Shown piece after piece: positions 58,699-63,760 of a stretch of 64,000 nucleotides of DNA. Source of the stretch: Magnetococcales bacterium (GTDB lineage Bacteria; Pseudomonadota; Magnetococcia; Magnetococcales; Magnetaquicoccaceae); NCBI GenBank assembly GCA_015231755.1, contig JADGAZ010000011.1, forward strand, positions 62,001-126,000, in the 5' to 3' direction. The notes under the pieces are model-generated. The model saw only the letters and a list, made by a program, of their open reading frames with translations. It did not search any database and was not told where the DNA came from. The position numbers and the translations under genes are program-made. The first letter of the stretch is position 1. Every line of letters begins with the position of its first letter.

Positions 58699-60378
58699 AT
58701 GGCGCGGGATCCGGTCACGGTCAATCCGGATGCGGACGCGCCATCGCTGCGGTCTGATTACATCACCCGCAATCAAACCCGTTTCCTGGAAGCGGTCAAC
58801 CGTTTCAACCGGGAATCCCCTCCCGGTCCCGCCGGGGTGTTTGCGGGGCTGTTCGCGTTTCACTGGCTGCGCCAGGAGATCCACCCCCTCCACCGCAACC
58901 CGATCCTGGCCATATCCCGCAATCCCGACCACGCCTGGCTGGCCACCCTGCTGGATCAGGCCCACGATCCGGACCATTTCGTGGCCGGTTTCCTCGACCA
59001 CTGGCATCACGCCCCTCCCGATCACCCCAAAGCCGAAGCACTGCGCGCTTGGCACACCCAGCATCCGGTCAATCCCCAGGCCGCCATCCTGGCCACATGG
59101 CAACGGATGAACCCCTTCGGCTACGGCCTGCAAGAAGGCATCCGCCACATCCAGCAGCACCAGAAAACCATCGCCTCGGAGACCGGTGGACCCCTGGACC
59201 GGGAACGAATGGCCCTGGTGGATGGATTGCCCTCACCCGGATCCGTCAAACCCTGGTCCAAGGCGGGATTCATCCCCCGCATGGCCTGTTCCCAATCCTG
59301 CCGCCACTGCATGTTCGTATGGCGGGATCCGGTCAAACAGCCCCTGGATCCCACCCCGCTGCTGCATTGGATCAACCGTCACACCCCCTCGATTCTGTTC
59401 ACCGGGGGAGAGTTGCACGATCAATTGCCTCTCTTTCATCAAGCCATCCGGGAAATGGATCGGGTGCAATCCTTCGCGATTCTGCTCAACGGCGCCACCG
59501 CCGACTCACCGGACGCGGCCAAGGCCCTGTTTCAATCCCTGGAAGAGGCCCGCAGCCGTCGTCCTTCCCGCAGCCAACCCGCCGGGATCACCCTGCAAAT
59601 CAGTTTCGACGAATATCATCAAGAGATTCTGGCCAATCGGGACGGATCCCTCCGGGAACGCATTCCGGTGGCCCATATCGCCCATCTGATTCGGGCCTCG
59701 GTGGCGTTTCCGCACATTCGTCTGGTCCTGCTCCACAAACAAAACCGCCTCAACTTCTCCCGCGCCCTGCTGGAACAAGGGGTGATTCCCAGACTCATCC
59801 GGGCACTCCAGGCCCAGGGGGAAGAGTTGCGTCTGATCCGTCACGCCCTCTCCCCACGCCTCAAGGCGGATCCGGTGGATCGGAATCGCACCGGCCCGAT
59901 CATCCGCGATGCCGTATTCGCGCTGGCTTCCCACCCGACCCATCCGATCCACTGGATGAGTTCCACCATCGACGCCTATGGCCGGGCCGCGTTACTCGAT
60001 CCGAGCGAATACGTGAACGAACGTCTATATCTGCGAGACATTCTCGACCACGGCGCCCCGGACGGGGAACGGTTCGACACCGATCCCATGATCCGCGCCG
60101 ACGGCATGGTGAGCTGTTTTGCGGCCAATCATCTGTGGTTGGGAAATCTGGGGGAGGAGAGCCGGGAGACCATTTTGGCCCGACACGGCAAGGATCCGCT
60201 GCTCAAAGCCCTGGAGCGGTTCGATCCCAGGGTGCCACGATTTTATCAAGAGGCTGCCCAGGATCTGGAAACCCGGATCGCCCAGGCCACCGGACCCCAT
60301 CATCTGTTTCATCATTTGACCGAACGGGCCGGGATGCGTCTTTATCTGACCCGCAGACTACTTGGCATTCCGGGCTGA
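58699..60378 (+). CDS. Radical-SAM-like protein of unrecognised subfamily
   Basis: The 559-residue protein starts at ATG 58699, with AGGAG nine bases upstream. The first 190 residues are helical and not recognised. A radical-SAM cysteine motif C197-x3-C201-x2-C204 (ACSQSCRHCMF) follows, and 31 residues later GGE (236-238), which in this superfamily contacts the methionine amino group of SAM. Near the C-terminus GMVSCFAANHLWLGNLGEES resembles the end region of radical-SAM maturases. It therefore probably binds a 4Fe-4S cluster and cleaves SAM; the substrate is unknown. It is likely co-transcribed with the chemoreceptor, and its 3' end overlaps the convergent H-NOX-PilZ gene by 21 bases. Confidence 0.72.
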   Translation: MARDPVTVNPDADAPSLRSDYITRNQTRFLEAVNRFNRESPPGPAGVFAGLFAFHWLRQEIHPLHRNPILAISRNPDHAWLATLLDQAHDPDHFVAGFLDHWHHAPPDHPKAEALRAWHTQHPVNPQAAILATWQRMNPFGYGLQEGIRHIQQHQKTIASETGGPLDRERMALVDGLPSPGSVKPWSKAGFIPRMACSQSCRHCMFVWRDPVKQPLDPTPLLHWINRHTPSILFTGGELHDQLPLFHQAIREMDRVQSFAILLNGATADSPDAAKALFQSLEEARSRRPSRSQPAGITLQISFDEYHQEILANRDGSLRERIPVAHIAHLIRASVAFPHIRLVLLHKQNRLNFSRALLEQGVIPRLIRALQAQGEELRLIRHALSPRLKADPVDRNRTGPIIRDAVFALASHPTHPIHWMSSTIDAYGRAALLDPSEYVNERLYLRDILDHGAPDGERFDTDPMIRADGMVSCFAANHLWLGNLGEESRETILARHGKDPLLKALERFDPRVPRFYQEAAQDLETRIAQATGPHHLFHHLTERAGMRLYLTRRLLGIPG

Positions 60379-61632
60379 GGCGACCTTGGCCTGAAGGGAT
60401 TCCATGGCGTCGTCGTGCATTTTGGTGGAGTATTGCTCCATGACCATGCTGTCCCGTCTGGCCAACGCGGAAAAGACAATCCGCATGGCCATGGAGCCAT
60501 CCATGGGGGAAACATCCAGAATATTGCCTTCCAGAACCATCGGCACCGGACCCAACACGATGGTATCGTCCAACTCGACATATTTCAAAGGCAACGAAAA
60601 ATCCACGGAGACCGGCTCGAACAGCAACACCTCCGGCAAACGACACCCCTTTTCCAACAAAACGCGCACGCCGCCGCTGGCGACATTCAGGATCATCCCG
60701 CGAAACAGCCGTTTGCCCAGTTTCATGCTCACCGGCATGGGTTTGTCCGGAGACACCCGCAAAAAACGACGACATCCGACCGCCCCATCGGTCAGACGAA
60801 TGTTGACCAGCGAAGCAAAACCCTGGACCCCATCCACCTCGCGGATCAACGCCTTGAGCCCCTGGGGCAGGTGGGGCAGAGAAAGAAAGGTCTGTTTTTC
60901 CTCTTTCATGGTGTGCAACTGCATGGGAGGCACCTGAACCAGCACCTCTTCCTTGCTGTAGCGCAACACCAACCCCAGATCGGAAAACGGCACCCCCTGA
61001 AACGAATTATAAAAGGTGATCTCGGCAATCCGACTGTGAACCGTGCCGAACTCCCGTTCGATGTCCACATAACGCAGGAAAAACGGATCATCCAGAAAAA
61101 CCGACATCCGGCACAAAGGCGCCTCCTGGAGCATGCAGACATGTTCCTTGAAGGCGATCGGCTCCTGAAAAAACAGCCCCAGACCGCGAATGATCCCCTT
61201 GAGCAAGGCGCACAGCTTGCGCCGTGACACGTAGGCCACCGCCACTTCGCCATGCTTGAGCCGATAGGTGCGGATGTCCGGGGGCATGACTCCGGATTCG
61301 ATATTGGCGAACGGGGCCAATACATGGCTTTGCAGATGTTCGAGGATATCGAGGGTTTTCCACTCTTTGCGCAGAATTCCCATGGAACGACCCATGGTCA
61401 CGAGACCGGGACTCATGTGCTGGCCAAACAGTTCCAGGGTCTGGGTGAGGGGCTGCTTGAGCTGTTTGGCGGAAAGCTCGAACAGGTCACTGGCCAGAGA
61501 GTCCGGGTAGTAGCGATCCGGCTCGAACTCCTGATCATGAAGGTTGGCTGCCTGAAGGGCACGGCTCCACGCCCCCTCGCCCAGGCGGGCTTCCAGAAAA
61601 TCCTCCAATGCCAGAAACATGATGCCATGCAT
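60358..61632 (-). CDS. H-NOX (haem NO/O2-binding) domain fused to a YcgR/PilZ-like c-di-GMP-binding module
   Basis: Residues 1-180 form an H-NOX domain. The start MHGIMFLALEDFLEA is the family start, the probable proximal haem ligand is H99 in EHLQSH, and the haem-propionate motif Y-x-S-x-R is Y134-V-S136-R-R138, followed by K139 and FFQEPI as in Thermoanaerobacter H-NOX. Residues about 200-285 look like the N-terminal barrel of YcgR proteins. A PilZ domain follows, with R288-R289-x-x-R292 and N316-V-A-S-G-G, where the usual DxSxxG is NxAxGG. The 424-residue soluble protein could thus join gas sensing to c-di-GMP binding. No good ribosome-binding site precedes the ATG. It converges with and overlaps the radical-SAM gene. 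Confidence 0.83.
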   Translation of the reverse strand: MHGIMFLALEDFLEARLGEGAWSRALQAANLHDQEFEPDRYYPDSLASDLFELSAKQLKQPLTQTLELFGQHMSPGLVTMGRSMGILRKEWKTLDILEHLQSHVLAPFANIESGVMPPDIRTYRLKHGEVAVAYVSRRKLCALLKGIIRGLGLFFQEPIAFKEHVCMLQEAPLCRMSVFLDDPFFLRYVDIEREFGTVHSRIAEITFYNSFQGVPFSDLGLVLRYSKEEVLVQVPPMQLHTMKEEKQTFLSLPHLPQGLKALIREVDGVQGFASLVNIRLTDGAVGCRRFLRVSPDKPMPVSMKLGKRLFRGMILNVASGGVRVLLEKGCRLPEVLLFEPVSVDFSLPLKYVELDDTIVLGPVPMVLEGNILDVSPMDGSMAMRIVFSALARRDSMVMEQYSTKMHDDAMESLQAKVASARNAK

Positions 61633-61892: not shown

Positions 61893-62852
61893 ATGGCGAA
61901 GGAAACCCATCATCGATTGATCATTCTCGGTTCCGGACCGGCTGGCTACACTGCGGCCATCTACGCGGGTCGCGCCAACCTGAAGCCCGTGTTGATTCAA
62001 GGCATGCAACCCGGCGGCCAATTGACCACGACCACGGAAGTGGACAACTTCCCCGGTTTTGAACAGGGCGTTCAAGGCCCGGAACTGATGGAAAAAATGC
62101 GTGCCCAGGCCGAACGGTTCGACGCCTCCATGGTCTACGACACCATCACGACAACCGATCTCACCACCCGTCCATTCCGGCTGATCGCCGACTCCGGAGA
62201 TGTCTATACTTGCGACGCCCTGATCATCTCCACCGGCGCCTCGGCCCGCTGGCTGGGTCTGGAGTCGGAACAAAAACTGAAAGGATTCGGGGTGTCGGCC
62301 TGCGCCACCTGTGACGGATTTTTCTTCCGGGGTCAGGAGATCGCCGTGGTGGGCGGTGGCAACTCGGCAGCCGAGGAGGCGATTTTTCTGACCAATTTCG
62401 CCACCAAGGTCTATCTGGTCCACCGTCGGGACCGGCTGCGGGCCGAACAGGTCATGCAGGACCGGGTGCGCAACAATCCCAAAATCCAACCGGTCTGGAA
62501 CTCGGTGGTGGAAGAGATTCTGGGAGAGGCCGGCAACGGGGGAGTGCGGGGAATCCGACTGAGAAATGTCAAGAATGGCGAAATCCAGGAATTGCCCTTG
62601 ACCGGGGTGTTCGTGGCCATCGGTCACTCGCCCAACACGGAGATTTTCGGCGATCAGTTGGAAAAAGACGAAGCCAACTACCTGATCACCAAACCCGATT
62701 CCACCGCCACCACCATTCCCGGTGTCTTTGCCGCTGGTGATGTGCAGGATCGGCATTACCGTCAGGCCGTTACCGCCGCCGGCACCGGGTGCATGGCCGC
62801 CCTGGAAGCCGAACGCTACCTCACCGAACTGGACGATTCGTCACACAGCTAA
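61893..62852 (+). CDS. trxB: Thioredoxin reductase
   Basis: The 319-residue flavoprotein has the FAD motif ILGSGPAGYTAAIYAGRA, the redox-active C137-A-T-C140 in SACATCDGFFF, the NADPH motif VVGGGNSAAEEA and the closing FAAGDVQDRHYRQAVTAAGTG. It reduces thioredoxin with NADPH. GGAG lies nine bases before the ATG. It is divergent from the H-NOX-PilZ gene (260 bases apart) and is followed by a perfect hairpin. Confidence 0.96.
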   Translation: MAKETHHRLIILGSGPAGYTAAIYAGRANLKPVLIQGMQPGGQLTTTTEVDNFPGFEQGVQGPELMEKMRAQAERFDASMVYDTITTTDLTTRPFRLIADSGDVYTCDALIISTGASARWLGLESEQKLKGFGVSACATCDGFFFRGQEIAVVGGGNSAAEEAIFLTNFATKVYLVHRRDRLRAEQVMQDRVRNNPKIQPVWNSVVEEILGEAGNGGVRGIRLRNVKNGEIQELPLTGVFVAIGHSPNTEIFGDQLEKDEANYLITKPDSTATTIPGVFAAGDVQDRHYRQAVTAAGTGCMAALEAERYLTELDDSSHS

Positions 62853-62960: not shown

Positions 62961-63620
62961 TCAATCCCCGGAATTCTTGCCATTCGACTGCCCGGACTTC
63001 TTGGCATCCTTCTTGGCGGCATCCTTCTTGGCACCCTCTTTCTTGGCGGCATCCTTTTTGGCGGCATCCTTCTTGGCGCCGTCCTTTTTGGCGGCATCCT
63101 TCTTGGCACCATCCTTTTTGGCGCCGTCCTTCTTGGCGGCATCCTTCTTGGTGGATTCCTTTTTGCCGACTTCTTTCTTGTCCGCTGTTCTTGCCTTGGA
63201 ATCCTGTTTGGCAGAGTCCTTGTTCGCGGATTTGTTCGCATCATCCTTTTGATCTTTCGACTTTGAGGCATCCGCGGATTTGGAACCTTTGGTAAATTTA
63301 CCGTTTCCGCTCATCTGATTGTTTGAAAAATCCCCAACATACTTATCGCCGTTCGGATAAATGAACGTACCCTTGCCATCCATCTTATTATTCTTGTATT
63401 CTCCGGTATAGACGCTTCCATCCGGATAGGTAAATTTACCTTGACCATGAATCATGCCATTCTTGTATTCTCCGGTATATTTACTGCCATCCGAATACGA
63501 GTAAGTCCCTTTCCCGTTGACACAGTCTCCGGAAATACATCTTTCCTGAGCCTGCCCTGTCGAGACGGTAGCAAAAAACAATAACAGAGCAACCAATACT
63601 TTTGAATACGGAATTTTCAT
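62961..63620 (-). CDS. Secreted MORN-repeat protein with a lysine/alanine/aspartate-rich repetitive tail
   Basis: The 219-residue product has a signal peptide (MKIPYSKVLVALLLFFATVSTGQAQ) and a Cys pair (CISGDC). Three MORN repeats follow (for example DGSKYTGEYKNGMIHGQGKF, 23 residues per unit). The C-terminal half is dominated by about eleven copies of a pentapeptide of the form xAKKD, giving a highly basic helical tail as in the C-terminal domains of some nucleic-acid- or wall-binding proteins. AAGGA lies ten bases before the ATG at 63620. It ends near trxB in convergent orientation. Function is unknown; MORN units usually mediate membrane or protein contacts. Confidence 0.85.
   Translation of the reverse strand: MKIPYSKVLVALLLFFATVSTGQAQERCISGDCVNGKGTYSYSDGSKYTGEYKNGMIHGQGKFTYPDGSVYTGEYKNNKMDGKGTFIYPNGDKYVGDFSNNQMSGNGKFTKGSKSADASKSKDQKDDANKSANKDSAKQDSKARTADKKEVGKKESTKKDAAKKDGAKKDGAKKDAAKKDGAKKDAAKKDAAKKEGAKKDAAKKDAKKSGQSNGKNSGD
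62998..63150 (-). repeat. 15-bp tandem repeat encoding the xAKKD tail
   Basis: About ten imperfect 15-base units, each containing TTCTTGGC or TTTTTGGC on the plus strand, encode the pentapeptide repeat at the C-terminus of the MORN protein. Such arrays change copy number easily by slippage, and whole units keep the reading frame. Confidence 0.8.
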
Positions 63621-63729
63621 GTCTTGCATCCTTGTAGCAAAGAAAAAAGAGATCCAGCTCGCGCCATGGTCCGGCATGGGGCGGCAATCCAAACACTCGA
63701 CACTGAGATCATCCTTGGGCTGATTTCCC

Positions 63730-63760
63730 ATAATACGTCATCGGAGGTTGACCTTGCCAA
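63730..63760 (-). promoter_or_regulatory. Candidate promoter of the MORN gene
   Basis: Reading leftwards, TTGGCA (63760-63755) is separated by 19 bases from TATTAT (63735-63730), about 100 bases before the start codon. Both hexamers are close to consensus but the spacer is long. Confidence 0.4.

What the first reader, a model, noticed from the sequence alone, without database searches (positions are those of the whole stretch)
60358..61632. H-NOX domain fused to a PilZ-like c-di-GMP-binding module
H-NOX proteins normally sit beside histidine kinases, diguanylate cyclases or phosphodiesterases as separate polypeptides. Here the haem domain (H99, Y134-x-S-x-R138) continues into a YcgR-like barrel and a PilZ domain with RRxxR. 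One protein could integrate NO or O2 with c-di-GMP and act on the flagellum or another target. The PilZ second motif is NxAxGG rather than DxSxxG, so c-di-GMP affinity is uncertain.
Basis: partly seen in the sequence, partly recalled or inferred. Interest (0 to 1): 0.75.

Follow-up and report, generated by a model that had tools for sequence, protein, structure and literature searches.

The report
H-NOX–PilZ fusion that lost its haem ligand
Magnetotactic cocci carry a protein in which a gas-sensor domain (H-NOX) is fused to a cyclic-di-GMP-reading motor-brake module; in most of them, including this one, the amino acid that holds the haem iron is gone while a zinc/cysteine redox site is kept, so it is more likely a redox sensor than a nitric-oxide sensor.

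Summary
The fusion is real. ORF 60358-61632 (-) encodes 424 aa: H-NOX (Pfam HNOB, E=2.6e-21, residues 2-162), then a YcgR/MotI-like region ending in a PilZ domain (found in 42 of 42 homologues). The host belongs to Magnetococcales. Orthologues occur in 43 of 48 genomes of the order (27 of 27 good ones). In the other Pseudomonadota sampled the two halves occur only apart. I found no paper describing the fusion.

The haem reading is mostly wrong. H99 is not the haem ligand. The proximal-His column (So H-NOX His103) is residue 105, a leucine here. It is His in 26/26 stand-alone H-NOX domains but in only 12/47 fusion proteins. By contrast YxSxR is kept, and the known H-NOX zinc site (3 Cys + 1) is kept as C141/E163/C166/C174 in 42-44 of 47. 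PilZ R288, R292 and G321 are invariant; Ser318 is kept in 46/47, and only the window copy has Ala.

Best mechanism (inferred, about 0.45): a haem-independent Zn/Cys redox switch, as shown for haem-free Vibrio and for Caulobacter H-NOX, gating a c-di-GMP-dependent YcgR-type effector, possibly on the flagellar motor. Rivals: pocket-ligand sensor without the iron-His bond; protein-interaction domain; classic NO/O2 sensor.

The parts
60358..61632 (-). H-NOX-YcgR/PilZ fusion gene, 424 aa plus stop (P0001)
   Evidence: start codon position conserved (M, or V = GTG) in 46/47 homologues
61084..61632 (-). H-NOX (HNOB) domain, residues 1-183
   Evidence: Pfam PF07700 E=2.6e-21; profile vs PDB So H-NOX 2kii E=5.7e-30; Foldseek 4u99 E=1.9e-10, TMt 0.75
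61318..61320 (-). Leu105 (TTG) at the position of the proximal haem histidine (So H-NOX His103)
   Evidence: His in 26/26 stand-alone H-NOX, 12/47 fusion proteins
61336..61338 (-).
   Evidence: H28 N11 R5 Q2 F1 in family
61219..61233 (-). Y134-x-S136-x-R138 haem-propionate motif, retained
   Evidence: 46, 44 and 41 of 47
61210..61212 (-). Cys141, equivalent of zinc ligand Cys139 of So H-NOX
   Evidence: C in 43/47
61144..61146 (-). Glu163, at the position of zinc ligand His161 (His/Gln in known proteins)
   Evidence: E in 44/47
61135..61137 (-). Cys166, equivalent of zinc ligand Cys164 of So H-NOX
   Evidence: C in 42/47
61111..61113 (-). Cys174, equivalent of zinc ligand Cys172 of So H-NOX
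   Evidence: C in 43/47
60784..61083 (-). middle region, residues 184-283, position of the YcgR N-terminal barrel; boundaries approximate
   Evidence: Foldseek MotI/DgrA 5vx6 over about 150-209 columns, low-confidence model; no Pfam match
60463..60783 (-). PilZ domain, about residues 284-390
   Evidence: Pfam PilZ in 42/42 members
60757..60771 (-). R288-x-x-x-R292, PilZ c-di-GMP motif 1
   Evidence: invariant 47/47
60670..60687 (-). N316-V-A318-S-G-G321, PilZ c-di-GMP motif 2 (family (N/D)xSxxG)
   Evidence: S in 46/47, G 47/47; only the window copy has Ala318
61893..62852 (+). thioredoxin reductase (trxB), divergent neighbour, about 260 bp apart
   Evidence: Pfam Pyr_redox_2 E=2.9e-48; adjacent in 25 loci

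Best explanation
The protein is a two-input signalling effector of Magnetococcales. Its H-NOX domain resembles the zinc-site (Shewanella/Vibrio/Caulobacter) type of H-NOX but has lost the proximal haem histidine. It most likely senses the thiol/disulfide redox state through the C141/E163/C166/C174 zinc site: oxidation would move Cys141 at the start of helix G, shift the glycine hinge (G70/G146) and reorient the two H-NOX subdomains. That movement would be passed directly to the fused YcgR/MotI-like module, whose PilZ domain binds c-di-GMP, so that redox state gates a c-di-GMP-dependent output, by homology a brake or clutch on the flagellar motor. Shown here: architecture, distribution, His loss, retention of the zinc-site residues and PilZ motifs. 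Inferred: zinc binding, redox response, c-di-GMP binding, the motor as target.
For: Column 105 is His in 26/26 stand-alone H-NOX but 12/47 fusion proteins; it ranks 108th of 183 columns for conservation in the fusion and 5th of 172 in stand-alone proteins. Zinc-ligand columns rank 19-23 of 183 in the fusion family. Published work: haem-free V. cholerae H-NOX is reversibly activated by oxidation of exactly this Cys site (PMC7108781), and Caulobacter H-NOX is activated by Cys oxidation and not by NO (PMC12329717). PilZ R288/R292/G321 are invariant. The host has 36 GGDEF hits and FliG. trxB lies divergently next to the gene in 25 loci, where most other neighbours differ. Hosts with cd1 nitrite reductase, a likely NO source, still lack the His.
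Against: YxSxR, which holds haem propionates, and Pro118 are still conserved, which suggests that something still occupies the pocket. The fourth zinc-site residue is Glu instead of His/Gln. A few members, including the one in the single-contig genome G037, have lost the Cys site as well. The trxB linkage arose once on the tree, so it is no independent correlation. Both AlphaFold models are of low confidence (pLDDT 55.7). The motor target rests on homology alone.
Confidence: 0.45

Rival explanations
1. Pocket-ligand sensor without the iron-His bond: the H-NOX pocket still binds haem, a porphyrin or another anionic ligand through YxSxR, and presence or absence of that ligand (or a permanently His-free, 'NO-activated-like' haem) is the signal passed to the PilZ module.
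For: YxSxR retained in 46/44/41 of 47 and Pro118 in 43 of 47 although the His is lost. The So H103G mutant was solved in a ligated Fe(II)CO haem state (2kil), so the fold can hold haem without its His.
Against: No other residue near helix F is a conserved candidate ligand. YxSxR may be kept for folding or for contacts with the fused half.
Confidence: 0.25
2. Protein-interaction or structural H-NOX, like the haem-free H-NOX domain of the sGC alpha subunit (own knowledge): it senses nothing itself, positions the protein or binds a partner, and c-di-GMP is the only input.
For: Family-specific conserved residues W91, D95, E98, R121, R124 and E129 on and near helix F, a face that contacts HnoK in other H-NOX (PMC7108781), are not conserved in stand-alone proteins. 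The G037 copy has lost both His and Cys and is still kept.
Against: The zinc-site residues are kept in about 90% of members or more, which a bare scaffold would not need, although zinc can be purely structural.
Confidence: 0.17
3. One reading: a haem-based NO or O2 sensor fused to a c-di-GMP receptor, with His99 or His103 or another residue ligating the iron.
For: HNOB fold and YxSxR are present. 12 of 47 members, including the five divergent paralogues L048-L052, do keep His105, so the reading is plausible for those.
Against: The window protein has Leu105; H99 and H103 are not conserved, H103 not even among close relatives. The alignment from W91 to R124 has no gaps, so a register shift is unlikely.
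Confidence: 0.1

Closest known systems
H-NOX (HNOB) of Shewanella oneidensis / Vibrio cholerae / Caulobacter vibrioides, zinc-site groups 2-3
   Same: Best structural and profile match; YxSxR, glycine hinge, three zinc-ligating Cys; V. cholerae and Caulobacter proteins respond to Cys oxidation (PMC7108781, PMC12329717).
   Different: Those are stand-alone proteins that act on a separate histidine kinase and keep the proximal His; here the His is lost, the fourth ligand position is Glu and the output module is on the same chain.
YcgR / FlgZ / MotI (DgrA) / PlzD flagellar brake or clutch proteins
   Same: Middle region plus C-terminal PilZ with RxxxR and (N/D)xSxxG; Foldseek hits MotI 5vx6 and YcgR 5y6g/5y6f.
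   Different: None found with an N-terminal H-NOX; PilZ is divergent (below the Pfam cut-off in this copy); no motor-binding data.
GAF-inserted YcgR homologues of Leptospirales (YcgR_LIC_11920)
   Same: YcgR-type c-di-GMP receptor that acquired a sensor-type domain and has mostly replaced ordinary YcgR in a lineage (PMC11800159).
   Different: GAF-like insertion, spirochaetes; unrelated sensor fold and position.
H-NOX-GGDEF proteins and H-NOX/DGC or H-NOX/HnoK-HnoB systems
   Same: Also couple H-NOX to c-di-GMP (review PMC8846402).
   Different: They act on synthesis or breakdown of c-di-GMP; this fusion acts at a receptor for it.

Membership tests
H-NOX (HNOB) domain family | HNOB profile / H-NOX fold | tested here: met
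   PF07700 E=2.6e-21; 2kii E=5.7e-30; Foldseek
H-NOX (HNOB) domain family | YxSxR motif | tested here: met
   Y134, S136, R138
H-NOX (HNOB) domain family | proximal haem histidine | tested here: not met
   Leu105 in the window protein; 12/47 in family vs 26/26 stand-alone
H-NOX (HNOB) domain family | binds haem; NO/CO/O2 spectra | not testable with these tools
   needs purified protein
zinc-site H-NOX (redox-responsive group) | three Cys plus His/Gln at So positions 139, 164, 172 and 161 | tested here: inconclusive
   three Cys present; fourth position is Glu; metal binding not measured
YcgR/MotI PilZ receptors | PilZ domain with RxxxR and (D/N)xSxxG | tested here: met
   the window copy has Ala in place of Ser, 46/47 relatives have Ser
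YcgR/MotI PilZ receptors | N-terminal YcgR barrel before PilZ | tested here: inconclusive
   Foldseek hits MotI and YcgR but low-confidence model and no Pfam YcgR-N match
YcgR/MotI PilZ receptors | binds c-di-GMP and acts on MotA/FliG | not testable with these tools
   needs binding and motility assays

The most novel reading that the evidence does not exclude
A whole order of magnetotactic bacteria has converted an H-NOX gas sensor into a haem-independent zinc/thiol redox sensor and wired it directly to a c-di-GMP receptor of the flagellar-brake type, making a single-protein redox-plus-c-di-GMP integrator that could set swimming in redox gradients (magneto-aerotaxis).
Probability: 0.3. Interest if true: 0.8.

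Novelty: new variant of a known kind. Interest (0 to 1): 0.62.

Why it matters
Whether the H-NOX zinc/cysteine site is a physiological sensor in its own right is an open question raised by the V. cholerae and Caulobacter work. A lineage that dropped the haem ligand and kept the zinc site is a natural experiment on exactly that point. It also offers a core-gene candidate for how magnetotactic cocci link redox state and c-di-GMP to swimming, an area where receptors have only recently begun to be identified, and in another genus (PMC12442639). The fusion itself extends the known H-NOX outputs from c-di-GMP enzymes to a c-di-GMP receptor.

Tried and rejected
H99 or H103 as haem ligand: rejected by profile alignment and conservation. 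The single-sequence phmmer alignment had paired H103 with So His103 by placing a gap just after it; the family profile corrects this. A link between His retention and NO production: cd1 genes over the cut-off occur in 29 of 48 genomes; His-less copies sit in such genomes while several His-bearing copies do not; no simple match. trxB adjacency as independent support: only one change on the tree, so not independent. AlphaFold with only the six permitted close sequences gave pLDDT 55.7 for both the full protein and the C-terminal half; used only for Foldseek. Phyla other than Pseudomonadota were not searched with sensitivity; the one scan of the species genome collection finds only close relatives by design. 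Two papers on HNOB and PilZ diversity were not held. Literature for H-NOX with PilZ, HNOB with PilZ and H-NOX with magnetotactic showed no description of the fusion among titles and abstracts; the 14 papers that mention both H-NOX and PilZ were not all read through.

Full report
1. The observation. The window lies in a Magnetococcales genome: the nearest named record, 96% identical over the protein, is a Magnetococcales MAG. ORF 60358-61632 (-) reads 424 codons from an ATG whose position is conserved in homologues. Pfam finds HNOB at residues 2-162 (E=2.6e-21) and a weak PilZ at 288-376. Scanning 42 homologous C-terminal halves one by one finds PilZ in all 42. The profile of that half picks Alg44 PilZ and PP4397 at weak E-values in the PDB. 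Foldseek of the AlphaFold models, which are of low confidence (pLDDT 55.7), returns S. oneidensis H-NOX for the N-terminus, and MotI/DgrA, BcsA, E. coli YcgR and VCA0042 for the C-terminus. The fusion is therefore real.

2. Distribution. 43 of 48 Magnetococcales genomes, 27 of 27 good ones and 17 of 17 genera hold a match, nearly always full length. A 399-genome sample of Pseudomonadota, searched with the full-length profile, gave full-length matches only in Magnetococcales; elsewhere H-NOX stands alone (mostly about 180-230 aa) or the C-terminal half stands with other or unknown N-termini. Some cocci carry a second fusion, 25-30% identical. Relatives of the C-terminal half with other N-terminal parts exist in the order and in other Pseudomonadota, one of them REC-EAL-PilZ, so the module recombines with different partners.

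3. The haem ligand is missing. The profile of the H-NOX half aligns residue 105 with So His103; entry 2kil, the H103G mutant, differs at that very position. Between W91 and R124 the window protein and most His-bearing members align without gaps. The window has Leu (TTG) there. His is present in 26 of 26 stand-alone H-NOX and in 12 of 47 fusion proteins; the others have Leu 23, Phe 4, Gln 3, Val 2, Pro, Trp, Asp. On the tree the divergent paralogues L048-L052 all keep His, and at least five His/non-His changes are needed. Replacement by several different residues argues for repeated, relaxed loss (inference; the tree count alone cannot tell gain from loss). A published survey of 598 H-NOX found this His absolutely conserved (PMC7108781).

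4. What is kept. YxSxR (46, 44, 41 of 47), Pro118 (43), the hinge glycines G70 and G146 (all), and the zinc-site positions C141, E163, C166, C174 (43, 44, 42, 43). These last correspond to So Cys139, His161, Cys164, Cys172 (numbering from PMC7108781, alignment). Conservation ranks are 19-23 of 183 for the zinc site against 108 for residue 105. W91, D95, E98, R121, R124 and E129 are conserved mainly in the fusion family and may form the contact with the fused half (inference). In the PilZ half R288, R292 and G321 are invariant and Ser318 is kept in 46 of 47; the window copy is the single Ala.

5. Mechanism. In V. cholerae, haem-free H-NOX responds reversibly to oxidation through disulfides at this zinc site, with motions that resemble NO activation (PMC7108781). 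In Caulobacter, Cys oxidation and not NO activates H-NOX (PMC12329717). The fusion family looks like the evolutionary end point of that: haem ligand dispensable, thiol site kept. Fused to a YcgR/MotI-type receptor in a genome with 36 GGDEF hits and FliG, the simplest reading is a redox-gated c-di-GMP effector. The divergent neighbour is thioredoxin reductase in 25 loci, which fits, but the linkage arose once and proves nothing alone.

6. Doubts. YxSxR retention suggests that a ligand may still sit in the pocket. Glu in place of His/Gln as fourth ligand is untested. In G037 and its close relative G038 (L046, L047) the Cys site is gone, and in G037 the His too. The flagellar motor as target is homology only. 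No phylum outside Pseudomonadota was searched with sensitivity.

7. Verdict. New variant of known kinds: H-NOX and YcgR/PilZ are known; their fusion did not turn up in the held literature. A review of sensory domains in c-di-GMP networks suggests that HNOB is associated only with GGDEF-domain proteins, and does not treat PilZ. The loss of the proximal His with retention of the zinc site is the unexpected part.

Noticed in passing
61893-62852 (+): Thioredoxin reductase gene divergent from the fusion gene; same arrangement in 25 Magnetococcales loci, and ketopantoate reductase (panE) lies convergent downstream in about 23 loci.
   Followed up: partly
L049 3945-9257 (also L048, L050): A second, His105-bearing H-NOX-PilZ paralogue ends a same-strand cluster; in L049 it follows a hemerythrin-PAS-histidine kinase, a response regulator fused to a class III (adenylate/guanylate) cyclase, and a REC-PAS protein.
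   Followed up: partly
L046 8001-9248 (single-contig genome G037): This copy has lost the haem His (Gln), the YxSxR Ser and Arg, and all three zinc-site Cys, yet the gene and its PilZ motif persist.
   Followed up: partly
L113 1276-3663: Response regulator-EAL-PilZ protein: a c-di-GMP phosphodiesterase domain joined to a relative of the same C-terminal module.
   Followed up: no
G000:C14:104878-112517 (outside the window, same genome): Several cytochrome cd1-family (PF02239) genes in the host, a likely endogenous NO source; 29 of 48 genomes of the order have one over the cut-off.
   Followed up: partly
62961-63731 (-): Protein with MORN-like repeats and a long Lys/Ala-rich (KKDAAKKDGAKK) histone-H1-like tail.
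   Followed up: no
L054 7980-8537 (-): Stand-alone Magnetococcales H-NOX with both the haem His and the Cys3/Glu site, a possible picture of the ancestral state.
   Followed up: partly
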